Shown here piece after piece: positions 8,399-30,063 of a DNA stretch of 64,000 bases. The translations under genes were made by a program, and so were the position numbers. Below the pieces are notes generated by a model. The model was not told where the DNA came from. It ran no database searches and saw only the letters and a list, made by a program, of their open reading frames with translations. The stretch's first letter is position 1. Each line of letters opens with the position of its first letter. Source of the stretch: Fodinicola acaciae (GTDB lineage: Bacteria; Actinomycetota; Actinomycetes; Mycobacteriales; HKI-0501); the NCBI RefSeq assembly GCF_010993745.1, contig NZ_WOTN01000003.1, forward strand, positions 558,001-622,000, written 5' to 3'.

Positions 8399-8511
8399 GT
8401 TCTCCCTGCCCCATTGCATGTCCAACATCTGGTCCCAATTACCGGCCCGTCAAGCGACGGTAGGTGCCGGTGCCAGCCGGGGTGCCCCGACACGAGTGGG
8501 TGAAGAGCAGA

Positions 8512-13633: not shown

Positions 13634-14662
13634 ATGATCCACGAGGTAGACGAGGCCCTCCGCGAGCTGGTCCGCAACCGGGCACTGCCGGGAAGCGACG
13701 TGGAGGTCGCCTTCGAGGCCCCGACCAAGGAGTGGGCCGCTCGGCGGAACGCGCCGACGGTCAACGTCTACCTCTACGACATCCGCGAGGACCTGCGCAA
13801 ACGCAACCGTGGCATGCTCAACTCCTACGACGCGCAGGGAAAGATCGAGGCTCGTCACCTGCCGCCGCGCTATATCAAGTTGTCGTATCTGCTGACCGCC
13901 TGGACCCAGCGGCCGGAGGACGAGCACCGGCTGCTGTCGTCGCTGATGGGGTCGCTGTTCTTCTACGACGCGCTGCCGAAGGACATCCTGACCGGCTCGC
14001 TGGCCGACCTCGGCATGGACGTGCAGATCACCACGGCCCTGCCGCCGCCGGAGGACCGCTCCTTCGCCGACGTGTGGACGGCGCTCGGCGGCGAGCTGAA
14101 GCCGTCGCTGGACGTGGTGATCAGCGCGCCGATGATGACCGGGCGCGTCTGGCCGGCGGCGCCGATCGCCAGCACCGGCATGACGCTGGCCGGTGTCGAC
14201 ACGCAGACCGGCGAGGTCGACGAGCCGCTGCGGCACCACGTCGAATACATCGACGACGAGGACATCGTGGCGGCTGGCGGCGATGGCTCGGGCCGGCGGG
14301 TTTCGATGGCCAACGCGCGCGGTGGTGGCTCGGGTCGCGGTGGCAAGGGTCGGCGCGGTGGCTCGGATGGTGCTGACGGTTCGCCGGAGGGCGAAGGCGG
14401 CGGCGCGTCCGGTGGCGATACTGGCGCCGCTGGCGGCGGCGCGGCTGGGGCCGCGGCTTCGGCTGGTGGTACGGCTGCCGGCGGTGCGGCTGGTGGTCTG
14501 CGGCGTACGTTCCCCGCCGCGGGCGGAAGCGGTGGCAGTGTCGGTGTCGGTCCGAATGGCCAGCCGATGCCGCGGATCACCATGCGCCGGCGGCTGCGGA
14601 TCGCGCAGCGGGACAAGCCGGCCGACGGCGGCTCGACCGGTAAGGGGTCTGGCCAGAAGTGA
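13634..14662 (+). CDS. DUF4255 CIS tube/sheath terminator (Pvc16/Afp16-like)
   Basis: The N-terminal ~200 residues (IHEVDEALRELV, VNVYLYDIREDLRKRN, PPRYIKLSYLLTAWTQ) are the DUF4255/Pvc16_N domain. In Photorhabdus and Serratia particles the homologue caps the inner tube and helps end sheath growth. The rest (about 225-315) is a Gly/Ala/Ser-rich, probably disordered segment, then a basic tail (ITMRRRLRIAQR). At 342 residues it is longer than a bare DUF4255 domain because of this linker. The stop overlaps the GTG of the AAA+ gene by four bases. Confidence 0.88.
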   Translation: MIHEVDEALRELVRNRALPGSDVEVAFEAPTKEWAARRNAPTVNVYLYDIREDLRKRNRGMLNSYDAQGKIEARHLPPRYIKLSYLLTAWTQRPEDEHRLLSSLMGSLFFYDALPKDILTGSLADLGMDVQITTALPPPEDRSFADVWTALGGELKPSLDVVISAPMMTGRVWPAAPIASTGMTLAGVDTQTGEVDEPLRHHVEYIDDEDIVAAGGDGSGRRVSMANARGGGSGRGGKGRRGGSDGADGSPEGEGGGASGGDTGAAGGGAAGAAASAGGTAAGGAAGGLRRTFPAAGGSGGSVGVGPNGQPMPRITMRRRLRIAQRDKPADGGSTGKGSGQK

Positions 14663-16704
14663 CGACCGAACAGTCGGTGCTGGATCGGCTCGCCGTCCTG
14701 GAAAGCCGCGTCCGGCACGTACTCGCCGCGCGGCAGAGCGCGGATCCGCGGGCGGACGACGCGTTCCGCGGGCTCTACCTGTCCGACGAGATGATCGAGT
14801 CGCTGCTGGACGAGCCGCGCGAGCCGTTGACCGACGGCGCGCCGACCGGTCCGGCGGCGGCCGGCGATCCGAGCCGGCTCGGCCGGCTGGCCGCGCGGGC
14901 CGGACTGTCCGATGTGGACACCGAGCTGCTGCTGATCGCGGTGGCACCGGACCTCGACAGCCGGTTCGAGCAGTTTTACGGCTATCTCAACGATGACGTG
15001 ACACGGCGGCGCGCGACCGTCGGCCTCGCGCTGCGGCTTTGTGGTCTCCCGGAAACGTCCGCGGCCGGTCGCGCTCGGCTGACCGGTGACGCTCCTTTGT
15101 TGCGTACGGGCCTGCTGGCGCTCGAGGACGCCGACCGGCCGCTGCTCAGCCGGCAGTTGCGTGTGCCGGACCGGGTCGCGGCGTATCTGCTCGGCGACGA
15201 CCGGCCGGACGCCAGCCTGGCCGCGGTGTGCTGGCCGGACGACCTGTCCGGCCTGCCACCGCTGCCTGGTGCACCGGAGCTGGCGCGAGCCGTGGCGGCC
15301 GGCACGGCGTTGGCGTACTTGCGCGAACTGGCCGGCGGCAGCGGCCTGGCCGTCGCCGCGGCGGGGCTCGCGCTGGCCGGCCGGCCGACCCTGCCGGTCA
15401 ATGCGGAAGTGTTGGACAACAACGAAACCGATGCGTCGGTCGTACGCGCGCTGATGCTGGAGGCACTGCTGACCGGCGCCGGCATGGTGGCCGGACCGAT
15501 TGGCGCGGACGGACAACGCGGTCTGCGCAACATCGTCGAGTTGCTGGCGCACGCCGGCGTACCGCTGATCCTTTACGGCCCGGGCCGGTGGGATCCGCGC
15601 TGGGCCGACCGCGCGCCGCTGCGCGCCGACGCCGAGCCGGTCGGTCCGCAGGTGCGTGAGGTGTTGTGGCGCGGCATGCTCGACGGCACGCTCGGCACGG
15701 TTGATCCGGCCGAGGTGACGGCCCAGTTTATCCTTTCTCCAGTGCAAATCCGGCGTGCCGCGGCGGCTGCCCGTACGCTCGCCGTCGCCGAAGGTGGCCG
15801 CGAGGTGACCGCCGACCACCTGCGGCAGGGCTCGCGCGACCAGAACGCCGCCGGCCTGGAACGCCTCGCCCGCCGCATCGAACCGGCGGTCGGCTGGCCG
15901 GACCTGGTGTTGCCGGAGCAGGTCGCCGGCCAGCTTTCCGAGCTGTCCGCGCGGGCACGCCACCGCGAGCAGGTCCTCACCGACTGGCGCATGCGCCCCG
16001 GCGGCGGCCGAGGCCGCGGCGTCACCGCCCTCTTCGCCGGCGACTCCGGCACCGGCAAGACCATGTCCGCGGAGGTCATCGCCGGCGACCTCGGATTGGA
16101 CCTCTACACGGTCAACCTGGCGACGGTCGTGGACAAATACGTCGGCGAGACGGAGAAAAACCTCGAACGCATCTTCACAGAGGCGGCCGGCGTCAACGGC
16201 GTACTGTTGTTCGACGAGGCCGACGCGATCTTCGGCAAACGCTCCGAAGTGCGCGACGCGCACGATCGCTATGCCAACATCGAAAGCGCGTATCTGTTGC
16301 AGCGCATCGAAACCTTCGACGGGCTGGCCATACTGGCCACCAACTTACGCGCCAATCTCGACGAGGCATTCACCCGCCGCCTCGACATCGTCATCGACTT
16401 TCCCGTACCAGACGAGCCGCTTCGTCGGGCGCTCTGGGATCGGTGTCTGGGCAAGAGCTTGCCGCGAGCGGCCGACGTTGACCTGGATTTCCTGGCGGAT
16501 TCCTTCGAACTGGCCGGAGGTCATATCCGGTCGGCCGCGGTTACCGCGGCGTATTTGGCGGCTGAGGCAGGTCGACCGGTGAACATGGCTGATCTGGCCG
16601 GAGCGGTGGCGCGCGAATACCGGAAACTGGGGCGGCTCGTACTGGAGCGGGAATTCGGGAAGTACGTGGGAGTTTTGGCGCCGCGAGCGCAAAACGCCTT
16701 CTGA
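14659..16704 (+). CDS. AAA+ ATPase of the contractile injection system (Pvc15/Afp15-like)
   Basis: 681 residues. A long helical N-terminal region precedes one C-terminal AAA+ module with Walker A GDSGTGKT (near residue 460), Walker B VLLFDEADAIFG (near 515), and a sensor/arginine-finger region ILATNLRANLDEAFTRRLD. This is the ATPase conserved in eCIS loci and thought to help assembly or disassembly; it is not a ClpV. Start is GTG 14659, coupled to the DUF4255 gene by GTGA. A hairpin repeat follows the stop. Confidence 0.9.
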   Translation: MTTEQSVLDRLAVLESRVRHVLAARQSADPRADDAFRGLYLSDEMIESLLDEPREPLTDGAPTGPAAAGDPSRLGRLAARAGLSDVDTELLLIAVAPDLDSRFEQFYGYLNDDVTRRRATVGLALRLCGLPETSAAGRARLTGDAPLLRTGLLALEDADRPLLSRQLRVPDRVAAYLLGDDRPDASLAAVCWPDDLSGLPPLPGAPELARAVAAGTALAYLRELAGGSGLAVAAAGLALAGRPTLPVNAEVLDNNETDASVVRALMLEALLTGAGMVAGPIGADGQRGLRNIVELLAHAGVPLILYGPGRWDPRWADRAPLRADAEPVGPQVREVLWRGMLDGTLGTVDPAEVTAQFILSPVQIRRAAAAARTLAVAEGGREVTADHLRQGSRDQNAAGLERLARRIEPAVGWPDLVLPEQVAGQLSELSARARHREQVLTDWRMRPGGGRGRGVTALFAGDSGTGKTMSAEVIAGDLGLDLYTVNLATVVDKYVGETEKNLERIFTEAAGVNGVLLFDEADAIFGKRSEVRDAHDRYANIESAYLLQRIETFDGLAILATNLRANLDEAFTRRLDIVIDFPVPDEPLRRALWDRCLGKSLPRAADVDLDFLADSFELAGGHIRSAAVTAAYLAAEAGRPVNMADLAGAVAREYRKLGRLVLEREFGKYVGVLAPRAQNAF

Positions 16705-16798: not shown

Positions 16799-16986
16799 CT
16801 GGCCAGTTACCAACTTCCGTGGCACGCAAGGAAAGCATCCCCACACCGCGCGAGGCCTGAAAGACCAACGATCGCTGCCCTTTGAGGCACAAAGTGGTTC
16901 CCGAGAACCCATCCGGTTGGCCGTGTCCGGAGACTCTTAGCCGGACGAGGATTTCTGCGAGACAAAACCCTCGAGCGGGAGGCCTA

Positions 16987-18519
16987 ATGCCAACCTATCT
17001 GTCCCCTGGCGTGTACGTGGAGGAGGTCGACGCTGGTCAACGCCCGATCGAGGGCGTGGGCACCGCGGTGGCCGCCTTTGTGGGATTCGCGTCGCAGGGG
17101 CCGTTCAACACTCCGACGCTGGTGTCCAACTGGAGCCAGTACGTGCAGACCTTCGGCGAGTTCGTCGAGGGCACGTACCTCGCGCAGGCCGTCTACGGCT
17201 ATTTCCTGAATGGTGGCGGCAACTGCTACGTGGTTCGGATCGGAGGTGCGGCCTCCAACGGGAAGGCGGCCCTGCCGGCCGGCCCGCAGGCGCAGCTCGG
17301 CGCGTACCAGGTGGTGGCGAAGGAGCTCAACGCCGGCGACGGCGAGATCACCGTCGAGGTCGCGCCGGCAGCCGGCGAGAACCCGCCCGACGACCGGTTC
17401 ACGCTGAATGTCAAGCGTGGCAACAAGGTCGAGGAGACGTTCGAAAACGTCACCAGCAAGCGCGGCAAGGACAACGTCGTCACGCAGGTGCGCGAGCGGT
17501 CGAAGCTGATCACGCTGACCGAGCAGTCCGCCGGCCCCGGCGTCGTCGCGAAGCCGGCCGGCAACGCGACGTTGAAGCTGCCGCCGCCGGCGCCGGCCGT
17601 GCCGGAGCGGGTCAACGCCAACGACTACGTCGGCGACGTGGCCGACCGCACCGGTTTCGGTGGCCTGGAGACGGTCGAAGAGATCACCATGGTCGCGGCC
17701 CCTGACCTGATGACCGCGTACGAGGCCGGCGCCATCGACGGCGAGACGCTCAAGGCCGTGCAGCTGGGCATGATCGCGCACTGCGAGCTGATGGGTGACC
17801 GGATCGCGATCATCGACCCGCCGCCGAACCTCAACGCGCAGCAGGTGCTCAACTGGCGCAAGAACGAGGCAGGGTACGACTCGAAGTACGCCGCGCTCTA
17901 CTACCCGTGGCCGAAGGTTTTCAACCCGGCCAGCGGCAAGAACGAGTTCATCCCGCCGAGCGGTCACGTGGCCGGGGTGTGGGCCCGCAACGACAGCGAG
18001 CGCGGCGTGCACAAGGCGCCGGCCAACGAGGTCATCCGCGGCGCGGTGGCGCTGCAGAACACGCTGACCCGCGCCGAGCAGGAGCTGCTCAACCCGGTCG
18101 GCGTCAACTGCATCCGCACCTTCCCCGGCCGCGGCATCCGGATCTGGGGCGCTCGTACGCTCTCCTCCGATCCGGCGTGGCGCTATCTGAACGTACGGCG
18201 GCTGTTCAACTACCTCGAGGAGTCGATCCTCGGCGGCACGCAGTTCGTCGTCTTCGAGCCCAACGACGACGCGTTGTGGGCCCGGATCCGGCGCACCATC
18301 TCCGCCTTCCTGGTCAACGAATGGCGAAAGGGCGCCCTGTTCGGCCTGACGCCGGACGAGGCCTTCTACGTCAAGTGTGACCGCGAGACCAACCCGGCCG
18401 AGGGGATCGACGCCGGCCAGGTCGTCTGTGAGATCGGCGTGGCACCGGTGAAACCGGCCGAGTTCGTGATTTTCCGGCTCGCCCAGTTCTCCGGCGGCAC
18501 CAGCCTGGTGAACGAGTAA
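16987..18519 (+). CDS. Contractile sheath protein (Pvc2/Afp2-type)
   Basis: Major sheath subunit, 510 residues. The N terminus PTYLSPGVYVEEVDAGQRPI, including GVGTAVAAFVGFA, and the C-terminal domain (NPVGVNCIRTFPGRGIRIWG, LSSDPAWRYLNVRRLFNYLE) are the hallmarks of phage-tail sheath proteins. A variable insert occupies about residues 95-210. The ATG at 16987 has GGGAGG upstream; the frame stays open 105 bases further 5', but that part is non-conserved. Family knowledge: it forms the outer contractile cylinder around the inner tube. It opens the main structural block after a 282-base gap that probably carries a promoter. Confidence 0.95.
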   Translation: MPTYLSPGVYVEEVDAGQRPIEGVGTAVAAFVGFASQGPFNTPTLVSNWSQYVQTFGEFVEGTYLAQAVYGYFLNGGGNCYVVRIGGAASNGKAALPAGPQAQLGAYQVVAKELNAGDGEITVEVAPAAGENPPDDRFTLNVKRGNKVEETFENVTSKRGKDNVVTQVRERSKLITLTEQSAGPGVVAKPAGNATLKLPPPAPAVPERVNANDYVGDVADRTGFGGLETVEEITMVAAPDLMTAYEAGAIDGETLKAVQLGMIAHCELMGDRIAIIDPPPNLNAQQVLNWRKNEAGYDSKYAALYYPWPKVFNPASGKNEFIPPSGHVAGVWARNDSERGVHKAPANEVIRGAVALQNTLTRAEQELLNPVGVNCIRTFPGRGIRIWGARTLSSDPAWRYLNVRRLFNYLEESILGGTQFVVFEPNDDALWARIRRTISAFLVNEWRKGALFGLTPDEAFYVKCDRETNPAEGIDAGQVVCEIGVAPVKPAEFVIFRLAQFSGGTSLVNE

Positions 18520-18556: not shown

Positions 18557-19003
18557 ATGGCACTTCCCGATCTCGACAGAGCGGTCGGCTGGTCGTTTGG
18601 CCTGGAGATCGACGGCATCCAGGTCAAGGAGATCCAGGAGATCAGCGGCCTGAAGATGGAGCAGGACGTCATCGAGCTCAAGCACAACGCATCGCAGGAC
18701 GGCAAGTACATCAACAAAAAGATGCCTGGCCGCCAGAAAGCCGGCGAGATCACCGTCACCCGCGGCCTGTCCGACGACAAGTCGTTCGAGCAGCTGGTGA
18801 AGGACGCCCGCCTGGGCAACATGCCGGCCGCCCGCAAGAACGGCGCGGTGCTGGTCTTCGACTACCAGGGCGCGCCGATCAAGCGCTACAAGCTCACCAA
18901 CATGTGGGCCAAGAGCCTGGAGATCGGTTCGCTGAAGGCCGGCGGCACCGACGTACTCACCGAGAAGCTCACGCTGACCTACGAAACGATGGAAGTGGAG
19001 TAG
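18557..19003 (+). CDS. CIS inner tube protein 1 (T4 gp19-like)
   Basis: 148 residues (MALPDLDRAVGWSFGLEIDG, MEQDVIELKHNASQDGKY, GEITVTRGLSDDKSFEQLV), the phage tail tube family (gp19/Hcp-like fold). It stacks as hexameric rings inside the sheath. AGGAGA lies nine bases upstream of the ATG. A second tube paralogue is at 22340; two tube types are usual, one often contacting the baseplate. Confidence 0.93.
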   Translation: MALPDLDRAVGWSFGLEIDGIQVKEIQEISGLKMEQDVIELKHNASQDGKYINKKMPGRQKAGEITVTRGLSDDKSFEQLVKDARLGNMPAARKNGAVLVFDYQGAPIKRYKLTNMWAKSLEIGSLKAGGTDVLTEKLTLTYETMEVE

Positions 19004-19644: not shown

Positions 19645-22326
19645 ATGTGGCCATGGTCGTCACGCGTCCAGCGGGCCGCTCGGGACACCCCGAGCGGCCC
19701 GGCGGTGCCGCCTGACAATACGATCCGCGCTCGCGGACCCGCCGACTGGCAGGCGTTGCCGCCGATCGTCCCGGCGATCCCGTACCCACCGCTGGTCAAC
19801 CCGGTGCAGCGCTTCACCGCCGGCCTCACCAGCTGGCAGAGCCCCAGCTATCTGGGGACGCTCGGACACAGCATCGACCCGGACGGCCCGTCCGGTGTCA
19901 TTCCGGCGACACCCGTCGCGCCGGCTCAGCGGCAGACCGCGCTGCCGACCGGCGGCTCGGACCTGCCGCTGGCCATCCCGCCGGCGCAGCACCAACCCCG
20001 CCGCGGCGGGGCTTTCACCGTGCTGCAAAGGCTTTTCGGCGGTGGTGACAGCACGCCACCAGACTCCTTAGCGCCTGTTGTCGCGCGTACGCCGGCGGAG
20101 CTGCCGGTGAGCGCTCCGGCGGCGGTGCAGCGCGCCGCCGACACCTCAGCACCGGCGGCCGTCGGCTCGTCGATCGTTGAGACACAAGCGAATACGCCGT
20201 CGTACGAGGCGCCGACTGAGGCGCCGACGGTTGGTGCCGCGACGCCCGTACCGGTGCTGGACCCGCCGTCCGCTCCGGTCGCCGAGCCCGTCACCCGTAC
20301 CAACCACACCGACCTGGTGCTCGCCGCTCCGGTGCAGCGCTCGACACCCCTGACGACCTCGACGTTCACGCCGCCGATCCGTACGCTCACGCCGTTGCCG
20401 GCCGACACACCGCCGGTCGTGCCCGTCTCACGGGCGGCCGCCGACACGCCGCTGCTGGGCATGCCGGAAGCCGTCACGGAGACCGACGACTCCGGCGACG
20501 CGCCGACGAGCCAGCTCGGCGAGCTGCCGACCGCGCAGCGCTCCACCGGGACTTCCGTCGCTGGCACCGAAACTTTGGCGTCCTCCCCGGTGTCCATTGT
20601 GGACAGTGCGGCGCCGACGCTCGGCCTCGACAGTGAGCCGGCGGACACCGCCGGGGCGCCGCAGCCGACCACCCCCAGCGGTCCCCCGCCGGCGATGCCG
20701 GTCGTGCCGGCCGTCCAGCGCGCGGTCGACACCGACCCGCCGCGACCCGGCCTGGGGACACCTTTTTTCGCTGGTACGCCCGCTCCGCACGTCCAGCGGT
20801 CGGCCGCGGCCACGCCGAGCGTGACCCCGCGACCGCGCCGGCTCGGCCTCGGCGCGCCGCTGAACCCGCCGAGCGACGGCAACAACGAACCGCCGCCGTC
20901 GTCGACGCTGCCGACGGTTTCGCGCGCCGCCGAGGACAACGCGCCGCTCATCCCGCCGGCCGTACAACGGCTGATCAGCGGCGATATCAACGAAACTCCA
21001 GCGATCACAGAGCCGACGCCGGAAGCACCAAGCGCCGAGACCCCAGACCCTCCGGCGACGGCTCCGGACGGGCCGGCGACTCCTGATTCGCCGGCCACCC
21101 CTGACCTGCCGGTCGCGCCGACGCTGAACGCCGGCCAGCTGGCCGAGCCGGCGCCGGTCACCGCGTCCCCGGCGCCGGTCCAGCGTGCGGCGGCCGGCGT
21201 CGACATGCCGGTCGCGCCGACGTTGAACGGCGGCCCGACGGCCGAGCCGACGCCGCTCGACGCAGCCACCGCACCGGTCCAGCGAGCGACGACCGGCGTC
21301 GGCACACCGGCACGCACGACCGCGTCCACAGTGGACAGTGCTGCCAGCGTTTCCCACGGCAGCAACGGATCCGACCCGTACGCTGGCCTGCCAGTCCTGC
21401 CCGTCGCGCAGACGTCGTCCGTCGACACACCGACGCGTACGCCCGGCGCGCCAGCAACCAGCGTCACGCCGACGACCAGCACACTCGGCACCCAACCGAT
21501 CGCCACCACCGACGCACCGACCGACACCGTCGAGACACCGGATTTTGGTGCGCCAGAAGCAATGCCGGTGGTCCAACTGATCGCCGACCGGTCCCCCATG
21601 CCGATCCTGCCGGCGGCCGCCACGACCGCGAGCGCCGGCGGCTCGGGACCGCACGCCGTGCCATCGACCAACACGTGGAGCACCGCCACGCCGCAGGTGT
21701 ACGTCGCCCGATCCGCAGCCACCACACCAAAAACCACGTACGCACCGACGCCGGGCATCGACGTGTACGCGCCGGTGCAGCGGGCCGTCGCCACCGACGC
21801 CCCAACAGGCGCGGCACCGAGCGCAACGCCAGAGACGACCTCAGCATTCGACATCGCCTTCGGCACGACGCCGGCCGCCAGCCCGACCGCCAACGGCCGC
21901 AGCGCCACTTTTGCCGAGACAGCACCGAAAGTCGACCTGCCGACCGCACCGCGCGCACAGCAGAGCGTGCAGCGTACGCCGACCGGTACGCCACGGCTTG
22001 GCGCCGGCAGCCGGCAGCTCGTCCTGCCGCCGACGCAACAACAACTCACCGCCGAAGCCGTGCAGCGGATGGCCGCGCCGATGATCGCCGTACAGACGGA
22101 GCCAATCACCGTGCAGGCGGTGGAGACCGGTGAGCCGGCTCCGGCCGCCGAGCCCGCACCGGCAGCCGCACCGGCCGACGCAGCCCATCCGGGTGCCACG
22201 CCAGCTGCCGCGCAGGCACCGGAGGAGCTGCTGAAAACGCTGTTCGACCCGCTGCTGCGCCGGATCAAGGCCGAGCTGCGCAACGACCGCGAGCGCCGCG
22301 GCCTGATCACCGACTACCGACGCTGA
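19645..22326 (+). CDS. Large QR-repeat, Pro/Ala/Thr-rich CIS protein
   Basis: 893 residues, mostly low-complexity and predicted disordered. A conserved N-terminal part (MWPWSSRVQRAARD, then PSYLGTLGHSIDPDGPSGV at about 70-88) and a conserved C-terminal helix (LFDPLLRRIKAELRNDRERR) flank the repeat region. About fifteen VQR/AQR/LQR tripeptides, often APVQRA, punctuate it. Members of this kind lie between the small assembly proteins and the second tube protein in actinomycete CIS loci and vary greatly in length. Roles as ruler (tape measure), tube lumen filler or cargo adaptor are possible; none is proven here. No capsid or toxin domain is visible. Confidence 0.75.
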   Translation: MWPWSSRVQRAARDTPSGPAVPPDNTIRARGPADWQALPPIVPAIPYPPLVNPVQRFTAGLTSWQSPSYLGTLGHSIDPDGPSGVIPATPVAPAQRQTALPTGGSDLPLAIPPAQHQPRRGGAFTVLQRLFGGGDSTPPDSLAPVVARTPAELPVSAPAAVQRAADTSAPAAVGSSIVETQANTPSYEAPTEAPTVGAATPVPVLDPPSAPVAEPVTRTNHTDLVLAAPVQRSTPLTTSTFTPPIRTLTPLPADTPPVVPVSRAAADTPLLGMPEAVTETDDSGDAPTSQLGELPTAQRSTGTSVAGTETLASSPVSIVDSAAPTLGLDSEPADTAGAPQPTTPSGPPPAMPVVPAVQRAVDTDPPRPGLGTPFFAGTPAPHVQRSAAATPSVTPRPRRLGLGAPLNPPSDGNNEPPPSSTLPTVSRAAEDNAPLIPPAVQRLISGDINETPAITEPTPEAPSAETPDPPATAPDGPATPDSPATPDLPVAPTLNAGQLAEPAPVTASPAPVQRAAAGVDMPVAPTLNGGPTAEPTPLDAATAPVQRATTGVGTPARTTASTVDSAASVSHGSNGSDPYAGLPVLPVAQTSSVDTPTRTPGAPATSVTPTTSTLGTQPIATTDAPTDTVETPDFGAPEAMPVVQLIADRSPMPILPAAATTASAGGSGPHAVPSTNTWSTATPQVYVARSAATTPKTTYAPTPGIDVYAPVQRAVATDAPTGAAPSATPETTSAFDIAFGTTPAASPTANGRSATFAETAPKVDLPTAPRAQQSVQRTPTGTPRLGAGSRQLVLPPTQQQLTAEAVQRMAAPMIAVQTEPITVQAVETGEPAPAAEPAPAAAPADAAHPGATPAAAQAPEELLKTLFDPLLRRIKAELRNDRERRGLITDYRR
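21109..21306 (+). repeat. Two-copy 99-base direct repeat within the QR-repeat gene
   Basis: The segment beginning CCGGTCGCGCCGACG at 21109 returns at 21208, a 99-base (33-codon) period. Each copy encodes PVAPTLN, then AEP, then APVQRA/APVQRAT. This indicates growth of the low-complexity region by in-frame duplication. Confidence 0.8.
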
Positions 22327-22339
22327 GGGAGACGAACAG

Positions 22340-22777
22340 ATGGCCGACGACAACGCGGACGCTCCGGTGGCGGTGTGTTTCTTCGTGAAGATCGACGACG
22401 CCAACCTCGGCTCCTTCGACAGCTGTGACGGCCTCGGCCTGGAGGTCGTGATGGAGACCCGCGAGGAAGGCGGTCAGAACGGCATGGTCTGGCAGCTGCC
22501 GACCCGGATCAAGTGGTCGAACGTCAAGCTGACCAGGCCGGTCAGCCCGGACACCCAGAAGGTGCTGCAGTACTTCTCCAAGTACGCGAGCGGTTTCAAG
22601 CGGCAGACCGCGGTGATCGAGGCCCGCACGCTGGACGGCAAGGCGGTCACCAAGTGGTCGTTGTCCGGCGTGCTGCCGGTCAAGTGGAGCGGGCCGCAGC
22701 TGGGCATGGACAGCAACAAGATCGCCATGGAGACCCTGGAGCTCTCGCACCAGGGCTTCCTCAACGCGGCCGGTTAA
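22340..22777 (+). CDS. CIS inner tube protein 2 (T4 gp19-like)
   Basis: 145 residues (PVAVCFFVKIDDANLGSFDS, LEVVMETREEGGQNG, SNVKLTRPVSPDTQKVLQYF). This is a second member of the tail tube family, diverged from the one at 18557. Its position next to the LysM and spike genes suggests it is the tube-initiator ring contacting the baseplate, as Pvc5/Afp5 do. GGGAG lies about nine bases upstream of the ATG. Confidence 0.92.
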   Translation: MADDNADAPVAVCFFVKIDDANLGSFDSCDGLGLEVVMETREEGGQNGMVWQLPTRIKWSNVKLTRPVSPDTQKVLQYFSKYASGFKRQTAVIEARTLDGKAVTKWSLSGVLPVKWSGPQLGMDSNKIAMETLELSHQGFLNAAG

Positions 22778-22789
22778 GGGGAAACACAG

Positions 22790-23572
22790 ATGTCGCAGGC
22801 AGTCACGTTCAACTCGCCGGGAAGCCCAGCCAAAGGCGGCTATGCCTCGTCCCCGCCGGCCAACCTGCAGCGCGCCACGCTGAAGGTGCTCGAGCCGCCG
22901 TCGGACGCCACCCAGACCAAGCCGGGCGGCCCGATCGACGAGATCAAGTTTCAGTTCAACCCCAAGGAACTGACGCTCACCAAGACCGCCAACTGGGGTC
23001 CGGTCGAGCAGCGCAACGCCAAGAAGGGCGGACCGACCCAGTTCAAGGGGGCCCAGCCGGGAAAGCTCACGCTGGAGATGTTCCTGGACGCCACCGAGAA
23101 GATGGACAGCTCGGTGGTCGACACCGTCGAGAAGCTCTTCCAGTGCTGCGTGCCGACCGACAAGAGCCAGTCCAAGAGCAAGGCCTCGCCGCCGTGGGTC
23201 CAGTTCCAGTGGGGCGGCATGCTCAGCTTCCCCGGCTGTATCAAGAGCGTCACGGCCAAATACACGCTGTTCGCCTCGAACGGTACGCCGATCCGCGCGG
23301 TGTGCACGATCAACCTGGAGGAGATCTCCGGCGAGGAGAAAGGCCAGAACCCGACCTCCGGCTCGCTGGCCGTACGCGACGTACACACCGCCGTCGAAGG
23401 CGACACGCTCGCCTCGATCGCCAACAGCGCGTGGGGAAACCCGGAGCTGTGGCGCGAGCTGGCCAAGGCCAACGACATCGACAACCCGATGCACCTGCCG
23501 CCGGGGACCCGGCTGCTGGTGCCGGCGCTGGAGGAGCTCGGCCTCGGCGAGGACGGCGGCGTCCGTGGCTAA
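22790..23572 (+). CDS. LysM-containing CIS baseplate protein (Pvc7/Afp7-like)
   Basis: 260 residues. The N-terminal domain (IDEIKFQFNPKELTLTKTAN, TLEMFLDATEKMD, WGGMLSFPGCIKSV) is followed by a LysM module at about 197-250 (TAVEGDTLASIANSAWGNPE, PGTRLLVP). In characterised CIS particles this protein joins the tube to the spike hub; the LysM here is structural rather than proof of peptidoglycan binding. Its stop overlaps the GTG of the spike gene. Confidence 0.9.
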   Translation: MSQAVTFNSPGSPAKGGYASSPPANLQRATLKVLEPPSDATQTKPGGPIDEIKFQFNPKELTLTKTANWGPVEQRNAKKGGPTQFKGAQPGKLTLEMFLDATEKMDSSVVDTVEKLFQCCVPTDKSQSKSKASPPWVQFQWGGMLSFPGCIKSVTAKYTLFASNGTPIRAVCTINLEEISGEEKGQNPTSGSLAVRDVHTAVEGDTLASIANSAWGNPELWRELAKANDIDNPMHLPPGTRLLVPALEELGLGEDGGVRG

Positions 23573-25397
23573 CGAGAGCTTCGCCAACACGCTGCTGGTC
23601 GAGATCAACTCCACCAAGTTGCCGGCAGACCTGGCCAACCTGCTCGTCTACGCGTACGTGGACGACAGCCGCAACCTGCCGGACATGTTCATGCTGCGGT
23701 TCAAGGACCCCGACCAGGTCGTCGTGCAGAAGGCCAACATCCAGATCGCCGCGCCGATCAAGCTCAAGGTGCAGACCGCCGACCCGGCCGGCCCGGAGGT
23801 GCTGCTGGACGGCGAGATCACCGCGGTGGAGCTCAACGCCGACAAGTCCGGCACGTACACCGAGATCCGCGGCTATGACAAGGCGCACCGGTTCACCCGC
23901 GGCCGGCGCGTCGCCGCGTACCCGAACATGACGATCTCCGACATCGTCCGCAAGGTCGCGCAGCGCGCGAAGATCCCGGCCGGGGACATCGACAACATCA
24001 AGGGCTTTGGCGGCGACCCGCAGGCCCAGCTGAGCCAGGACAACGTCAGCGACGCCGACTTCCTGCAGCGGCTCGCCGATCTGGTCGGAGCGCAGTTCGC
24101 GGTGGTCGACGGCAAGCTCAACTTCAAGCTGCCGGAGCCGCCCAAGGACGCGCCGTCGGCGACCGCCAAGGCCAGCAAGAACCCGCAGGTGCTGGAGCTG
24201 GGCCGCAACCTGATCGCGATACGCGCGACTGTCACCGCCGCCGAGCAGGTGCCGGAGGTCGAGTCGCGCGGCTGGGACCCCAAGCAGAAGAAGTTCGTCA
24301 GCCAGAAAGGCACGCCGAAGCCGTCCGGCATCGAGGTCGCCGGCCTGGATCCGGTCGGCATGGCCGGCAAGGTCGGCGCGCCGCCGCTGCTGGCCGCCAA
24401 CTCCGCCTGGCGTACGCAGGCGACCGTGCAGGCCAACGCCGACGCGCTGGCCGCGCAGTTCGGCACCGCGGCCGCGGAGCTGGAGGGCGTCGCGCAGGGC
24501 AACCCCAAGCTGCGGGCCGGCGAGGCGGTCAGCCTGGCCAACGTGGCGCAGATGTTCGCCGGCAAGTACACGCTGACCACGACCCGGCACCTGTTCAGCC
24601 CGGAGGCCGGCTACACGACCGCGTTCACCGTGTCGCACCGGCAGGACCGGTCGTTCTACGGCCTGACCTCCGGCTCGACCGACGCCAGCGCCACGGTCAG
24701 CGGCCCGGTGCCCGCGGTGGTGACCGACCTCAAGGACCCGGACAAGCTCGGCCGGGTCAAGGTGAAGTTCCCGTGGATGTCCGACGACTACAACAGCGGC
24801 TGGGCGCGGACCGTGCAGGCCACCGCCGGCAACACGTACGGCTCGGTGTTCCTGCCGGAGGTCGGCGACGAGGTGCTGGTGGACTTCGAGAACGGCGACT
24901 TCGACGCGCCGTACGTGCTCGGCGGCCTCTACAACGGCAAGGACGCGCCGCCGAAGCTGGCGGCCGAGCCGGTGGACAGCGCCGGCGGCAAGGTCAACGT
25001 CCGCGCGCTGGTGTCGCGTACGCACCACCGGCTGGAGCTGATCGACGACCCGCAGGTCGACGCGATCCTGCTGTCCACCGGCGACGACAAGCTGCTCATC
25101 AAGCTCGATCACAAAAACCAGAACATCGAGGTCACCAGCAGCAAGACGATCGCGATCAAGGCGCAGAGCGGCATCAAGATCGACTCCGGCACCGGAACGC
25201 TGGAGATGAAGGGCCAGAAGGTCACCATCAACTCCCAGACCGACTACCAGCTGGACGCCAACGCCGGCATCAAGATGAAGGCCAACGCGGCGGCCAGCCT
25301 GGAAGGCGCGACGGTCAAGGTGGCCGGGCAGGGCACGGCCGAGTTCTCCGCCGGCGCGATCAACACCATCAAAGGTGCCATGGTCAAGATCAACTGA
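23565..25397 (+). CDS. VgrG-like central spike protein (Pvc8/Afp8-like)
   Basis: 610 residues. The gp27/phage late-control-D hub (about 1-370) includes LNADKSGTYTEIRGYDKAHR. The gp5 OB-fold (about 385-465) carries DPDKLGRVKVKFPWM and FLPEVGDEVLVDFENGDFDA. The C-terminal repetitive beta-helix spike contains TIAIKAQSGIKIDSGTGTLE. It forms the puncturing needle base that receives the PAAR tip encoded next. Start is GTG 23565, overlapping the LysM gene by eight bases. No C-terminal effector domain is fused. Confidence 0.95.
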   Translation: MANESFANTLLVEINSTKLPADLANLLVYAYVDDSRNLPDMFMLRFKDPDQVVVQKANIQIAAPIKLKVQTADPAGPEVLLDGEITAVELNADKSGTYTEIRGYDKAHRFTRGRRVAAYPNMTISDIVRKVAQRAKIPAGDIDNIKGFGGDPQAQLSQDNVSDADFLQRLADLVGAQFAVVDGKLNFKLPEPPKDAPSATAKASKNPQVLELGRNLIAIRATVTAAEQVPEVESRGWDPKQKKFVSQKGTPKPSGIEVAGLDPVGMAGKVGAPPLLAANSAWRTQATVQANADALAAQFGTAAAELEGVAQGNPKLRAGEAVSLANVAQMFAGKYTLTTTRHLFSPEAGYTTAFTVSHRQDRSFYGLTSGSTDASATVSGPVPAVVTDLKDPDKLGRVKVKFPWMSDDYNSGWARTVQATAGNTYGSVFLPEVGDEVLVDFENGDFDAPYVLGGLYNGKDAPPKLAAEPVDSAGGKVNVRALVSRTHHRLELIDDPQVDAILLSTGDDKLLIKLDHKNQNIEVTSSKTIAIKAQSGIKIDSGTGTLEMKGQKVTINSQTDYQLDANAGIKMKANAAASLEGATVKVAGQGTAEFSAGAINTIKGAMVKIN

Positions 25398-25427: not shown

Positions 25428-25715
25428 ATGCCACCAGCCGCGCGTCTCGGCGACCTGACACCGCATCCCGGTGTGGTCGCCGGACCGTGCGTACCCACCG
25501 TGCTGATCGGCGGCCAGCCGGCCGCGGTCGCCGGCGGAGCGAGCCTGCACACCTGCTCGATGCCGCCGCCGGCCGGACCGCATCCGCCGTCGCCGTTCGC
25601 CCCGGGCTGCCCGACCGTGCTGATCGGCGGCTCGCCGGCCGCGCGCGTCGGCGACATGTCCGGCTGCGGTGCGCCGATCCTGCCACCCGGCTGCCCGACC
25701 GTGATGATCGGCTGA
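25428..25715 (+). CDS. PAAR-repeat spike tip protein (Pvc10-like)
   Basis: 95 residues with PAAR-type motifs (PPAARLGDLTPHPGVV, CVPTVLIGGQPAAV, CPTVLIGGSPAARVGD). Three CPTV(L/M)IG turns form a small cone that caps the VgrG trimer; the conserved Cys and His residues usually hold a metal ion. A strong AGAGGAG precedes the ATG. Confidence 0.93.
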   Translation: MPPAARLGDLTPHPGVVAGPCVPTVLIGGQPAAVAGGASLHTCSMPPPAGPHPPSPFAPGCPTVLIGGSPAARVGDMSGCGAPILPPGCPTVMIG

Positions 25716-25728
25716 GAGGCGTACGAGG

Positions 25729-26211
25729 ATGCGACACGAGTTCATCGGCTCCGGCTGGGCCTTCCCGGTGCGCACCGACGCCACCGGCTCGATCGCGCTG
25801 GTCAGCGGCGAGCGCGAGGTGGCCGAGAGCATCCGGCTGATCCTCGCCACCGTCCCCGGCGAGCGGCCGATGCGGCCGGCCTTCGGCTGCAACATCCACG
25901 ACCTGGTCTTCGCGCCGGCCGACGCCGCCACCGCCGGCCAGATCGCGTACGAGGTGCGGATCGCGCTGGACCGGTGGGAGCCGCGGATCGTGCTGGACGA
26001 CGTGATCATCAGCTTCGACCGCGTCGAGGACGGCATGTTGCTGATCGACATCCGCTATCGGCTGCGGGACACCAACGACCCGCGCAACCTGGTTTTCCCG
26101 TTCTACACGATCCCCGCCCATGAGGGACCGGACGGCATCTCCGCGGAGGACCGACCGGCCGAAATCGCCGCCGCCACCGACGCGGTCGCGCTCAGCAAGG
26201 GAGATGCCTGA
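25729..26211 (+). CDS. gp25-like baseplate wedge protein (Pvc9/Afp9-like)
   Basis: 160 residues (FIGSGWAFPVRTDATGSIAL, SIRLILATVPGERPMRPAFG), the gp25/lysozyme-like baseplate family, which nucleates sheath polymerisation. The motif GERxMxPxFGC is typical. Its TGA shares one base with the ATG of the next gene (TGATG). Confidence 0.93.
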   Translation: MRHEFIGSGWAFPVRTDATGSIALVSGEREVAESIRLILATVPGERPMRPAFGCNIHDLVFAPADAATAGQIAYEVRIALDRWEPRIVLDDVIISFDRVEDGMLLIDIRYRLRDTNDPRNLVFPFYTIPAHEGPDGISAEDRPAEIAAATDAVALSKGDA

Positions 26212-28145
26212 TGGCACTGCCGACCCCCAACCTGGACGACCGACGGTTCCAGGACCTGGTGGACGAGGCCAAACGGATGGTGCAGCAGCGCTGTCCGGAG
26301 TGGACCGACCACAACGTGTCCGACCCGGGGGTGACGCTGATCGAGACCTTCGCGTTCATGGTCGACCAGCTGCTCTACCGGCTCAACCGGGTGCCCGACC
26401 TGCACTATCTGAAGTTCCTCGACCTGATCGGCGTGCAGCCGTTTCCGCCGACCGCGGCGACCGGCGACGTGACCTTCTGGCTGTCCGCGGCGCAGGAAAA
26501 CCCGATCCGGGTGCCGGTCGGCACCGAGGTGTCCAGCGTACGGACCGAGTCCGAGGAACCGGTGATCTTCACCGTCACCAAGAAGCTGGACATCGTGCCC
26601 TCCAGCCTCGTACGGCTCGCGCTGGCCAGCCCGCAGACCGCGCCGGTCGACCGTACGGACGAGCTGGAGGCCGAGGGCAACCCGATCCCGGTCTTCTCCC
26701 CCACTCCGCAACCCGGCGACACGGTGATGTTCGGCCTGTCGTCGGCCGTACCGAACTGCGCGATCCTGCTCCGCGTCGAGGCGCAGGCCGAAGGCGTCGG
26801 CGTCGACCCGCGCGACCCGCCGTGGACCTGGGAGGCGTGGGACGGCCAGGGCTGGGCCACCTGCGAGGTCGACTGGGACACCACCGGCGGCTTCAACAAG
26901 CCGGGCGACATCGTGTTGCACGTGCCCGGCTCGCACACGCCGTCGGTCGTCGGTCGCGCTCGCGCCGGCTGGATCCGCTGCCGGGTCACCGAGCCGGAGG
27001 AAGGCCAGCGGTTCTATTCGCTGCCGCCGAAGCTGTTCTCCGCGTCGGCCAGCACGATCGGTGGCACGGCGGCGGTCGCGCACGCGGACATCATCGTCAA
27101 CGAGATCATCGGCGAGTCCAACGGCGCCGCCGGCCAGCAGTTCACCTTCGGCCAGCTGCCACTGGTCGCGCCGGACGGTCCGATGACCGTCGAGGTGTCC
27201 AGCGACGACGGCTGGCAGGAGTGGACGCAGGTCACCTCCTTCGCCGAGTCGCGGCCGGCCGACCGGCACTTCACCCTGGACCCGGTGGCCGGCAAGCTGC
27301 AGTTCGGTCCGGCCGTACGGCTGCCGGAGGGCGGCATGCGCAACTACGGCGCCATCCCGCCGAAAGGCGCCGTCATCCGGGTGCCGGAGTATCGGACCGG
27401 CGGCGGCCGGCGCGGCAACGTGGCGCGCGGCGTGCTGCAGGTGCAGCGCGAGCCGATCCCGTTCGTCAGCAGCGTCATCAACCGCCGTCCGGCGACCGGT
27501 GGCGTGGACGGCGAGTCGGTCGAGGACGCCGCCGTACGCGGACCGTTGCTGCTGCGTACGAAGGACCGCGCGGTCACCGCGGAGGACTACGAGGCGCTGG
27601 CGATCGAGGCGGCTCCGGAGGCGGCGCGGATCCGCTGCGTGCCGGTCGAGGAGGCCGGCACCGCCGTACGCGTGCTGGTCGTACCGGCCGTCGGCGACAC
27701 CAACGACCTGCAGTTCGCCGACCTCAAGCCGAGCGAGGAGCTGCTGAAGAAGATCGCCGGCCACCTGTCCGGCCGGCGCTGCGTCGGCGCGCGGGTCGCG
27801 GTCGAGCCGCCGTTCTACCAAGGCGTCACGGTCGTCGCGCAGCTGACGGCACGCAACCGTACGTCCGCCGACGCCTTGCGAGCGCGCGCGTTGCGGACGC
27901 TGGACACGTATTTCAACCCGATCACCGGGGGCGCTGACGGCAAGGGCTGGCCGTTTGGCCGTCCCGTACAGGCCGGCGAGGTCTTCGCGGTGCTGCAGCG
28001 GCTGCGCGGCGTCGAGATCGTCGAAGGCGTGCAGCTGTTCGCGGCCGACCCGGTGACCGGCGACCGCGGCGAGCCGGTGCAGCGGATCGACCTGGCGGCC
28101 AACGCGCTGGTCTTCTCCTACCGGCACCAGATCAGGGTGCGGTGA
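26211..28145 (+). CDS. Baseplate J/gp6-like wedge protein (Pvc11-like)
   Basis: 644 residues of the putative baseplate assembly family. The N terminus reads PNLDDRRFQDLVDEAKRMV, WTDHNVSDPGVTLIETFAFM and RLNRVPDLHYLKFLDLIG. A beta-rich middle precedes a C-terminal J-like core (LRTKDRAVTAEDYEALAIEA, VRVLVVPAV). It forms the wedge ring around the hub together with gp25 and the gpI-like protein. It is translationally coupled at both ends. Confidence 0.93.
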   Translation: MALPTPNLDDRRFQDLVDEAKRMVQQRCPEWTDHNVSDPGVTLIETFAFMVDQLLYRLNRVPDLHYLKFLDLIGVQPFPPTAATGDVTFWLSAAQENPIRVPVGTEVSSVRTESEEPVIFTVTKKLDIVPSSLVRLALASPQTAPVDRTDELEAEGNPIPVFSPTPQPGDTVMFGLSSAVPNCAILLRVEAQAEGVGVDPRDPPWTWEAWDGQGWATCEVDWDTTGGFNKPGDIVLHVPGSHTPSVVGRARAGWIRCRVTEPEEGQRFYSLPPKLFSASASTIGGTAAVAHADIIVNEIIGESNGAAGQQFTFGQLPLVAPDGPMTVEVSSDDGWQEWTQVTSFAESRPADRHFTLDPVAGKLQFGPAVRLPEGGMRNYGAIPPKGAVIRVPEYRTGGGRRGNVARGVLQVQREPIPFVSSVINRRPATGGVDGESVEDAAVRGPLLLRTKDRAVTAEDYEALAIEAAPEAARIRCVPVEEAGTAVRVLVVPAVGDTNDLQFADLKPSEELLKKIAGHLSGRRCVGARVAVEPPFYQGVTVVAQLTARNRTSADALRARALRTLDTYFNPITGGADGKGWPFGRPVQAGEVFAVLQRLRGVEIVEGVQLFAADPVTGDRGEPVQRIDLAANALVFSYRHQIRVR

Positions 28146-28726
28146 GGTCGATGCGTAACGCGGTGACCGAGCTGCCGACCGCCTACCCGATCGGCGCGCA
28201 GCTGCCGGCGGTCTATCTGGAGGACGAGTTCACGCAGCGGCTGACCGACGCACTCGACCAGGTGCTGGCGCCGGTCTTCGCGGTGCTGGACTGCTTCGCG
28301 GTCTACATCGACCCGCGGCTCGCGCCACCGGACTTCCTGGACTGGCTGTCGGAATGGGTCGCGGTCCATCTGGACGAGGGCTGGACGCCCGAACAGCGGC
28401 GTACGTTGGTCACCCACGCGGTGCACCTGCACCGCTGGCGGGGCACGGCGCACGGCCTGTCGACGGTGACGAAGCTGTTGACCGGCGGACAGGTCGAGGT
28501 CGCCGACTCCGGTGGCTGCTCGATCTCGCAAACCGCCAACTCGGCACTGCCTGGCTCGTCGCCGGCGCAGGCGGTCGTCCGGCTGCGGGTCCCCGACCCG
28601 GACCAGGTCGACCTGCGACGGCTGCGGTCGGCGGTGGCCGAGACGATCCCGGCGCACGTCGCCGTACGAGTCGAAGTCTCCTCGTCCAATCCTGCGGGCC
28701 CCAAGAAGACAGGTGCTTCCGGATGA
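28142..28726 (+). CDS. Tail protein I-like baseplate component (Pvc12-like)
   Basis: 194 residues (LPAVYLEDEFTQRLTDALDQ, PRLAPPDFLDWLSEWVAVHL, HAVHLHRWRGTAHGLSTVTK), the phage P2 gpI-type family found in CIS baseplates. Start is taken at GTG 28142, overlapping the previous stop (GTGA); ATG 28151 with GAGG before it is the alternative. The 3' end overlaps the ATG of the zinc-ribbon gene. Confidence 0.9.
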   Translation: MRSMRNAVTELPTAYPIGAQLPAVYLEDEFTQRLTDALDQVLAPVFAVLDCFAVYIDPRLAPPDFLDWLSEWVAVHLDEGWTPEQRRTLVTHAVHLHRWRGTAHGLSTVTKLLTGGQVEVADSGGCSISQTANSALPGSSPAQAVVRLRVPDPDQVDLRRLRSAVAETIPAHVAVRVEVSSSNPAGPKKTGASG

Positions 28727-30063
28727 TCGTGTGCAAGACCTGCGGCGAGCAGAACGAGAACGACGCGCGGTTCTGCGCCAACTGCAGCTCGTACCTGGAA
28801 TGGGACGGCCAAGCGGTGCCGACCGGGCCGGTGCCGGTGCACATGCTGGACCGCAACCAGCCTGCGCCGACCCAGGGCGGCACGCCGCCAGCCACCCCGA
28901 GCACGCCGACTCCGCCGGCCGGTGGCGGCAGCGACACGCCGTACACACCGCCGCCGACGACCGTGATCAACGTGCCGCGCGAGATGCTCAACCGGCCGGC
29001 CAGCGGCCTGGCCGGCGATCCGGGCGCGCCGCCACCGCCGCCTGCGCCACCGCCCGCTCCGCCTACCGGTCCGGCTCCTGGTCCGCCCGCTGGTCCGCCG
29101 GCGGGCTACAACCCGTATCCGGCCGGCGGTTATCCGGCTCCGCAGAACCAGCCGGCACCTGGTCACCCCGCGGGTCCACAGCCGCGGATGCCCGGGGCGC
29201 AGCAGCCGTCCGAGCCGGTACGACGGCGCCGCCGCCAGCCGACCCCGACGCCGGAGCCGGGCGTGGCGCCGGGCGAGATCGCCTGCCGGGTCTGCGGCAC
29301 CGGCAACACCCCTGACCGCCGGTTCTGCCGCACGTGCGGCACCGCGATGCTGCAGGAACAGGCACCGCCACCGGAGCGGATCGGCTTCTGGCGCCGGCTG
29401 TTCGGCGGCCGGAGCGCGCGCGAGGCAGCCGAGGCCGGCACGCGGCACCGCAACGTACGGCAGCCGATCCACTGGGTCCGTCCGGTGGTCATCCTCGCCG
29501 TCATCGCCGGGCTGCTGTTCGTCGGTCTGGGACCGGCACGGCCGTACATCGTCAAGGGCATCGACCTCGCGCGCGACCGCTTCGCCACCAAGGTCGTGGT
29601 CAATCCGCAAGGCTGGAAGCAGTCGTCGTCGTACGCCTCGCCGGCGACAGCGCTCGGAGACAAGAATGGCGCGACTTTCTGGGCTCCGGGTAAGAAGGCG
29701 CCGAACGGCGGCATCGGCTCGTGGTTCGAGGCGTCGTTCTCGCCGGCCATCGGACGGCTGACCAGCATCCAGGTGCTCAACGGCATTTCGGCCAACCCAC
29801 CGGACTACGCCGCCAACCGGAGACCGTCCGTCCTCAACTGCACGCTGACGAACGCGGCTGGTGACACCTTCACCTCATCGGTCGACCTGACGCTCGACGA
29901 CGTGCCAGGAGCGAAGGAATACACCTCCGTCAACGGCAACAACGTCACTGACGTCAAGTGCGTGATCAAGGCCGCGTACCAGGGTGACGCGACGAAGCCG
30001 CTGGCGATCAACGAGGTGACCTTCTTCGAGGACAAGAGTCGCAAGGTCACCATCGGCAAGTGA
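28723..30063 (+). CDS. Zinc-ribbon, single-pass membrane protein with C-terminal discoidin-like domain
   Basis: 446 residues. The first zinc ribbon has C4, C7, C18 and C21 (CKTCGEQ, FCANC). A long Pro-rich linker (about 45-185), a second ribbon (CRVCGTGN, FCRTCGT; about 186-210), a membrane helix (VVILAVIAGLLFVGLGPA, about 247-265) and a C-terminal beta domain (about 290-440) follow. The last resembles the discoidin-like or NADase-type glycan-binding family. Topology is probably ribbons inside and beta domain outside. It is the last gene of the CIS block, coupled by ATGA. By family and context it is a candidate for the protein that docks the cytoplasmic particle to the membrane, as described for CisA-type proteins in Streptomyces; that link is inference. 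Confidence 0.82.
   Translation: MIVCKTCGEQNENDARFCANCSSYLEWDGQAVPTGPVPVHMLDRNQPAPTQGGTPPATPSTPTPPAGGGSDTPYTPPPTTVINVPREMLNRPASGLAGDPGAPPPPPAPPPAPPTGPAPGPPAGPPAGYNPYPAGGYPAPQNQPAPGHPAGPQPRMPGAQQPSEPVRRRRRQPTPTPEPGVAPGEIACRVCGTGNTPDRRFCRTCGTAMLQEQAPPPERIGFWRRLFGGRSAREAAEAGTRHRNVRQPIHWVRPVVILAVIAGLLFVGLGPARPYIVKGIDLARDRFATKVVVNPQGWKQSSSYASPATALGDKNGATFWAPGKKAPNGGIGSWFEASFSPAIGRLTSIQVLNGISANPPDYAANRRPSVLNCTLTNAAGDTFTSSVDLTLDDVPGAKEYTSVNGNNVTDVKCVIKAAYQGDATKPLAINEVTFFEDKSRKVTIGK

What the first reader, a model, noticed from the sequence alone, without database searches (positions are those of the whole stretch)
28723..30063. Zinc-ribbon / Pro-rich / transmembrane / discoidin-like protein as candidate particle anchor
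Two Cys4 ribbons predicted on the cytoplasmic side, one helix and an outer beta domain make a natural bridge between a cytoplasmic CIS and the wall. It is translationally coupled to the baseplate gpI gene, so it is made with the baseplate. A link to CisA-type membrane-docking proteins is suggested by architecture only.
Basis: inference. Interest (0 to 1): 0.65.

Follow-up and report, generated by a model that had tools for sequence, protein, structure and literature searches.

The report
CisA-type membrane adaptor for injection particles
This gene encodes a membrane protein that very probably brings a cell's own phage-tail-like injection particles to its membrane so they can fire; it is a new relative of a protein already studied in Streptomyces, with some details that I did not find spelled out.

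Summary
The ORF 28723-30063 (446 aa) has two Cys4 ribbons, a Pro-rich linker, one transmembrane helix and a C-terminal beta domain, and overlaps baseplate gene cis12 by four bases. The CisA link is more than architecture. A profile of 15 Streptomyces proteins from the same place in CIS clusters matches it at E 3e-56; Cis11, Cis12 and sheath match the solved S. coelicolor CIS (9GTP); in 20 of 25 related loci the homologue directly follows cis12; in 41 Streptomyces genomes the 21 with a strong hit are the 21 with a high-scoring Cis11. So it is a Fodinicola member of the published CisA (SCO4242) family, whose deletion in S. coelicolor blocks firing. The outer domain is F5/8 type C (NADase_discoid, CBM32-like), whereas print suggests solute-binding or carbohydrate-degrading likeness. 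Added details: a first ribbon with LEWxG at the tip of a linker of 47-402 residues, a common juxtamembrane WWRR motif, and CIS-linked homologues in Chloroflexota. SCO4242 itself was not compared; docking, zinc and ligand are untested.

The parts
28723..30063 (+). cisA-like gene, 446 aa bitopic membrane protein
28732..28785 (+). zinc ribbon 1 (C4-C7-C18-C21)
   Evidence: pLDDT about 87-90 in the model
28792..28809 (+). YLEWDG after ribbon 1 (L25, E26, G29 invariant in 21 rows, W27 nearly)
28810..29268 (+). Pro-rich, predicted disordered linker (33 % Pro)
29284..29337 (+). zinc ribbon 2 (C188-C191-C202-C205)
29380..29400 (+). juxtamembrane IGFWRRL (WWRR-like in most relatives)
   Evidence: short helix 222-227 in the model
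29467..29538 (+). transmembrane helix (residues 249-272)
29539..29583 (+). helix after the membrane segment (273-287)
29587..30033 (+). F5/8 type C (NADase_discoid) beta-sandwich domain, expected outside
28142..28726 (+). cis12, baseplate wedge protein; stop overlaps the cisA-like start
26211..28145 (+). cis11, J-like baseplate wedge protein; published predicted partner of CisA
25729..26211 (+). gp25-like baseplate wedge protein (Cis9 type)
25428..25715 (+). PAAR spike tip
23565..25397 (+). VgrG-like spike (Cis8 type)
22790..23572 (+). LysM-type protein; the name Cis7 is recalled
22340..22777 (+). tube initiator (TIGR02241, CIS5 type)
18557..19003 (+). inner tube protein
16987..18519 (+). contractile sheath (match to the S. 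coelicolor sheath begins at residue 36 of the ORF that starts at 16882)
14659..16704 (+). AAA+ ATPase of the CIS cluster
13634..14662 (+). cap protein (Pvc16 N-terminal domain)

Best explanation
It is a CisA-family membrane adaptor of a type IId-like, probably cytoplasmic, contractile injection system. Its gene is coupled to the last baseplate gene. It sits in the cytoplasmic membrane with its N-terminus inside. Ribbon 1 with LEWxG at the tip of a disordered Pro-rich tether, ribbon 2 and the WRR juxtamembrane motif form the inner face that catches a free particle by its baseplate (Cis11 is the published predicted partner). The outer F5/8 type C domain is held by, or senses, an envelope glycan or similar ligand. 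Docking then lets the particle fire through the membrane. Shown here: gene, domains, family, neighbourhood. Shown by others in S. coelicolor: topology, and the need for CisA in firing. Inferred: ribbons as the docking surface, the ligand of the outer domain, the trigger.
For: Profile of 15 Streptomyces proteins from the same locus matches at E 3.2e-56 (search size set to 10,000) in two stretches: ribbon 1 (1.6e-5) and, from residue 53, nearly to the profile's end (2.6e-50). Cis11, Cis12 and sheath match chains of the S. coelicolor CIS: 2.6e-235, 1.9e-36, 1e-218 (9GTP identified). The homologue directly follows cis12 on the same strand in 20 of 25 loci, with a 4-base overlap in 14 of the 19 of these whose start could be placed. 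In 41 Streptomyces genomes 21 have a strong hit, and the same 21 have a TIGR02243 match over 400 bits. Outer domain: profile 7ji1 6.5e-20, model pLDDT 86, pTM 0.81, fold 2v72 CBM32 Z 16.5, 132 aligned, rmsd 2.2. Literature: CisA is bitopic, N-in, needed for contraction in situ, predicted to bind Cis11; Sco4242 has a Cys-rich probable Zn domain before the membrane helix and a conserved 150-residue C-terminal region.
Against: The profile score carries a composition bias of 34 of 191 bits. The window row has a long branch (1.41) and no well-supported place. No complex was modelled; zinc and ligand binding are untested. One high-scoring Cis11 copy (G038:C6, 441 bits) has no strong adaptor hit near it. 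Ribbon-ribbon-TM-F5/8C proteins without a CIS gene in the stretch held exist in Chloroflexota (L029, L031), so the architecture alone does not prove a CIS role. Vladimirov et al. did detect Sco4242 in purified particles, against Casu et al..
Confidence: 0.82

Rival explanations
1. Sensor and checkpoint first, holder second: the outer domain binds a stress signal, the protein oligomerises, and only then are particles allowed to fire. Not exclusive of the best explanation; the odds are for sensing being the main role.
For: Proposed in the discussion of the CisA paper, with a predicted pentamer of the C-terminal part. The outer domain is much more divergent than the ribbons (mean pairwise identity 34 % against 62 and 68 %), as expected of a ligand-specific part.
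Against: No ligand or pocket pattern was identified here; the published fold likeness was solute-binding, and no row shown in my fold searches is titled so. The ribbon figure is partly biased because ribbon 1 patterns drew the loci.
Confidence: 0.35
2. Tail-fibre equivalent: the protein stays on the particle and binds the target cell surface after release.
For: Gene position after the wedge genes is where fibres usually lie; Vladimirov et al. proposed a fibre and detected Sco4242 in all three purifications by mass spectrometry.
Against: A transmembrane helix; no density for CisA in the solved particle and no CisA peptides in purified particles, only in crude preparations from nisin-stressed cells.
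Confidence: 0.07
3. A general zinc-ribbon/F5/8C membrane protein that merely sits next to the CIS genes.
For: Relatives with the same order of parts and no CIS gene in the stretch held (L029, L031); ribbon plus LEW-like ends occur in other Chloroflexota membrane proteins.
Against: Synteny and co-occurrence; WWR[RT] or FWRR found in 21 of 22 Streptomyces loci and 17 of 20 linked loci, but in neither L029 nor L031; the genomes of L028, L029 and L031 also carry a Cis11.
Confidence: 0.04

Closest known systems
CisA / SCO4242 of Streptomyces coelicolor
   Same: Place after cis11-cis12, flexible N-terminal part, Cys-rich probable Zn domain before a single transmembrane helix, C-terminal region of about 150 residues.
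   Different: Fodinicola (Mycobacteriales) rather than Streptomyces; about 26-36 % local identity in the outer domain to 18 Streptomyces homologues. The first ribbon is not mentioned in the passages I read; the second corresponds to the published Cys-rich domain.
NADase_discoid / NADase_transloc F5/8 type C domain (NF047619, PF25302)
   Same: Outer domain scores above both curated cut-offs and is predicted to have the fold.
   Different: Here joined to a membrane helix and ribbons, no enzyme; the relative with a solved structure is the N-terminal domain of a streptococcal NADase.
Thylakoid-anchored CIS of Anabaena
   Same: A CIS tied to the cell's own membrane.
   Different: Anchored by an extension of its baseplate (PMC12237407 discussion), not by a separate bitopic adaptor.
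BN159_7588/7587 of the Streptomyces davawensis CIS
   Same: Proposed to attach a CIS to the cell envelope.
   Different: Described as a peptidoglycan-binding protein and its partner at the end of the cluster (PMC11126660, passages); homology to the present protein was not tested.

Membership tests
[quoted passage not shown]
   Overlaps cis12 by 4 bases; Cis11, Cis12 and sheath match best the S. coelicolor type IId CIS structures
CisA (SCO4242) family | Sequence homology with proteins at this locus in Streptomyces | tested here: met
   Profile of 15 Streptomyces locus-equivalents, E 3.2e-56
CisA (SCO4242) family | Direct or reciprocal match with SCO4242 or its S. albus homologue | not tested
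   Those sequences were not in hand
CisA (SCO4242) family | Cys-rich, probably Zn-binding domain of about 50 residues just before the membrane helix | tested here: met
   Ribbon 2, ending 48 residues before the helix; zinc itself untested
CisA (SCO4242) family | Single transmembrane helix | tested here: met
CisA (SCO4242) family | N-terminus cytoplasmic, C-terminus outside | tested here: inconclusive
   6 K/R before and 5 after the helix in the window; more before than after in 23 of 23 relatives
CisA (SCO4242) family | Largely unstructured N-terminal part | tested here: met
   Most of 35-171 at pLDDT under 50; the two ribbons are exceptions
CisA (SCO4242) family | Conserved C-terminal region of about 150 residues | tested here: met
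CisA (SCO4242) family | Needed for contraction of particles in the cell | not testable with these tools
   Needs deletion and cryotomography
F5/8 type C, NADase_discoid | Profile score above the curated cut-off | tested here: met
   NF047619 65.3 bits against 38; PF25302 33.3 against 27
F5/8 type C, NADase_discoid | F5/8C beta-sandwich fold | tested here: met
   Predicted model; the 50 entries shown have Z 14.4-16.5, CBM32 and discoidin among them
F5/8 type C, NADase_discoid | Binds glycan | not testable with these tools
   Needs binding assays
Periplasmic solute-binding protein (published fold likeness of CisA) | Solute-binding fold of the C-terminal domain | tested here: inconclusive
   No such family in the Pfam scan at E up to 1; no row shown is titled so, but absence from a list does not exclude it
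eCIS tail fibre | Fibre shaft and baseplate-attachment domain | not tested
   No fibre profile was searched

The most novel reading that the evidence does not exclude
CisA proteins work as a catch line: ribbon 1 with LEWxG at the tip of a tether of variable length picks particles out of the cytoplasm, ribbon 2 and WWRR seat the baseplate at the membrane, and an envelope-glycan-binding F5/8C domain reports wall state and so arms firing. The device is shared by Actinomycetota and some Chloroflexota, so it would be an old, general way for cells to fire injection particles through their own membrane.
Probability: 0.27. Interest if true: 0.65.

Novelty: new member of a known kind. Interest (0 to 1): 0.38.

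Why it matters
How a particle floating in the cytoplasm is brought to the membrane and triggered is open; CisA is the one factor reported in the papers I saw. Distant members tell which parts are constant: two ribbons, LEWxG, a WWRR-like motif, one helix and an F5/8C domain. They suggest that the outer ligand is a glycan or envelope surface and give precise mutants to test. CIS-linked members in Chloroflexi MAGs bear on a recent statement that Roseiflexus lacks close cisA homologues and may work differently (PMC12998442, passage).

Tried and rejected
Ribbon 1 plus LEW as a CIS-specific docking tag on other proteins: not supported. Chloroflexota proteins with similar N-termini (L088, L089, L091) have tails that look different by eye; no family scan was run on them and CIS genes were not sought near them. 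Two of six stretches taken for this (L090, L093) gave no ORF that fits the pattern.

Plasmid collection: no match. Defence library: none for this protein. PHROGs: only a weak ribbon match, 7.3e-4.

Cut-offs in the co-occurrence test (E 1e-20; 400 bits) were set after seeing the tables. The gap is wide for the adaptor (3.2e-21 to 3.1e-5), narrower for Cis11 (415.7 to 341.8 bits). Related genomes are not independent, so the 3.7e-12 printed is no true probability.

Five of 25 loci were not counted as linked: L010 (contig begins 110 bases before the match), L025 (Cis12 match on the opposite strand at a contig end, perhaps an assembly fault), L028, L029, L031 (no CIS gene found in the stretch held). 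Rows left out: A3 lacks L007, L025, L028, L029, L031; A2 lacks L025, L028, L029, L031; the tree lacks L007, L025, L028 and the duplicates L036, L038; one search lacks L007, L025, L036, L038, L042, L051, L054 and L028. One of 23 strong Streptomyces copies (G053:C1:892942) was not fetched or read.

Mirror-tree or coupling analysis between this protein and Cis11: not done, too few sequences.

Full report
What is there. The ORF 28723-30063 (+) is intact and encodes 446 residues. Its ATG overlaps the stop of the upstream gene (ATGA). From N to C: ribbon 1 (C4, C7, C18, C21) followed by YLEWDG; a linker 30-182 that is one third proline; ribbon 2 (C188, C191, C202, C205); IGFWRRL; AGTR; one hydrophobic helix at 254-272; a second helix; and a beta domain at 289-437. 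In the full-length model, made with 21 rows, both ribbons are confident, most of the linker is under pLDDT 50 and the overall pTM is 0.44, as expected of folded parts on a string.

Where it is. The window lies in an 8.86 Mb genome. A genome of the same genus, G001, and Fodinicola feengrottensis locus L007 share a contig of 248,021 bases, so the genus is very probably Fodinicola, Mycobacteriales. The gene ends a CIS cluster: cap, AAA+ ATPase, sheath, tube, two unnamed ORFs, tube initiator, LysM protein, VgrG-like spike, PAAR, gp25-like protein, Cis11, Cis12, then this gene. Cis11, Cis12 and sheath match chains of the solved S. coelicolor CIS best (9GTP is named in PMC12237407). It is the only TIGR02243 match in this genome. 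A second NADase_discoid match elsewhere in it is below cut-off (8.5e-6).

Relatives. A pattern scan of the species-genome collection gave 89 candidate stretches and 25 distinct loci. In 20 of 25 the homologue directly follows cis12 on the same strand; the other five are L010, L025, L028, L029 and L031. Of the 19 linked loci whose start could be placed, 14 have the same 4-base overlap; L009, L013, L015, L016 and L024 do not by my start choice. They come from Actinomycetes and Chloroflexi MAGs. All 21 rows of alignment A3 hit NADase_discoid. Invariant in 21 of 21: C4, C7, C18, C21, L25, E26, G29, C188, C191, N195, P197, R199, C202, G239, R241 and four residues of the outer domain. Both scan patterns came from ribbon 1, so its conservation in this set is biased. 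The Streptomyces set, found with a whole protein, is free of that bias.

Streptomyces. Those 21 are exactly the 21 with a TIGR02243 match over 400 bits; eight genomes with only weaker TIGR02243 matches and twelve without any have no strong adaptor. Of 23 strong copies, 19 lie 0.6-1.7 kb downstream of Cis11 on the same strand; the other four are on different contigs from it. One of 24 high-scoring Cis11 copies, G038:C6, has no strong adaptor hit near it. In S. atratus the two NADase_discoid matches are the two adaptors. Of the 22 Streptomyces loci read, three begin at the edge of the stretch held and lack an N-terminus; the other 19 have ribbon 1, and 21 of 22 have WWR[RT], L058 being the exception. 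In the loci, 17 of the 20 linked ones have WWRR, WYRR or FWRR; L009, L013 and L030 do not by that pattern. A profile of 15 Streptomyces loci finds the window protein at E 3.2e-56. The tree gives several lineages but cannot place the window row, which has a long branch.

Outer domain. The profile of 22 rows finds a solved F5/8C domain, 7ji1, at 6.5e-20 and others, CBM32 modules among them, at 3e-10 to 5e-7. 7JI1 is the N-terminal domain of the streptococcal NADase (review passages, PMC10818452). The model (pLDDT 86, pTM 0.81) matches CBM32, galactose oxidase and discoidin sandwiches at Z 14.4-16.5 in the 50 entries shown, and CBM32 and APC10/Doc1 domains by Foldseek. A shared fold shows no function. 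Print describes the Streptomyces domain as carbohydrate-degrading-like by HHpred (PMC10020575, section 11) or solute-binding-like by Foldseek (PMC12237407, sections 7 and 9). The words discoidin, CBM and NADase are absent from both main texts. F5/8C fits the first description better than the second.

How it works. Established in S. coelicolor: CisA is at the membrane, N-terminus in and C-terminus out; without it particles stay extended and stress-induced cell death falls; it was not found in the purified particle; Cis11 is its predicted partner through the cytosolic part (PMC12237407). An earlier paper did detect it in purified particles and called it a putative fibre (PMC10020575). By homology the same role is likely here. 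My inference adds that the two ribbons and the WRR motif are the docking surface. In 41 proteins (two of them, L029 and L031, not CIS-linked) the linker varies from 47 to 402 residues (CV 0.42), while the ribbon 2-to-helix distance (CV 0.16) and the part after the helix (CV 0.06) vary little. This fits a tether with a catching tip and a fixed seat at the membrane. It is not a demonstration.

Reach. CIS-linked members in Chloroflexi MAGs (L011, L012, L014, L015, L019-L023) extend the family beyond Actinomycetota. They look uncommon: 31 of 61 sampled genomes of that phylum have some match, mostly of ribbons alone, but only 3 of 61 a whole-profile match, at least one of them a seed. A group with both ribbons, a helix and an F5/8C domain but no WWRR (L029, L031; L092 by eye) forms its own branch in the tree, under a long-branch warning. 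No CIS gene was found in the stretches of L029 and L031; L092's surroundings were not searched for one. The genomes of L028, L029 and L031 do hold a Cis11. Whether these proteins serve the CIS is unknown.

Literature limits. Searches for CIS with CisA, zinc ribbon, discoidin, type IId and Chloroflexi covered open-licence papers only; one search listed 15 of 494 papers, most of them off topic. Supplements could not be read, so published alignments may already show ribbon 1.

Verdict. Real, correctly read, and a new member of the CisA family. Useful details are added, but the kind is known.

Noticed in passing
window 19645-22326 (+): 893-aa ORF just upstream of the tube initiator gene, with no match in Pfam, NCBIfam, PHROGs or PADLOC at the limits used. 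Its place resembles that of the S. davawensis tape-measure-related effector; it may be a cargo or effector.
   Followed up: partly
window 8464-13620 (+): 1718-aa ORF with many TolB/PD40 beta-propeller repeats and a DUF11 domain, after a LuxR-type regulator and just before the CIS cap gene.
   Followed up: no
window 19008-19484 (+): 158-aa ORF between the tube gene and the 893-aa ORF, weakly similar to a phage tail assembly chaperone (PHROG 508, 1.9e-6).
   Followed up: no
L007, 1-9334: The Fodinicola feengrottensis copy is split across frames in this gene, in cis11 and further upstream; several breaks in one contig suggest sequencing errors rather than decay.
   Followed up: no
L029, L031, L092: Chloroflexota ribbon-ribbon-TM-F5/8C proteins without WWRR (L092 by eye); for L029 and L031 no CIS gene in the stretch held. 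A possible family of unlinked CisA-like proteins.
   Followed up: partly
L027 and L067 (Streptomyces atratus): One genome carries two adaptors, each after its own cis12, only about 38 % identical.
   Followed up: no
L025, 3-578: CisA-like N-terminus on the plus strand over a Cis12 match on the minus strand at a contig end; perhaps an assembly fault.
   Followed up: no
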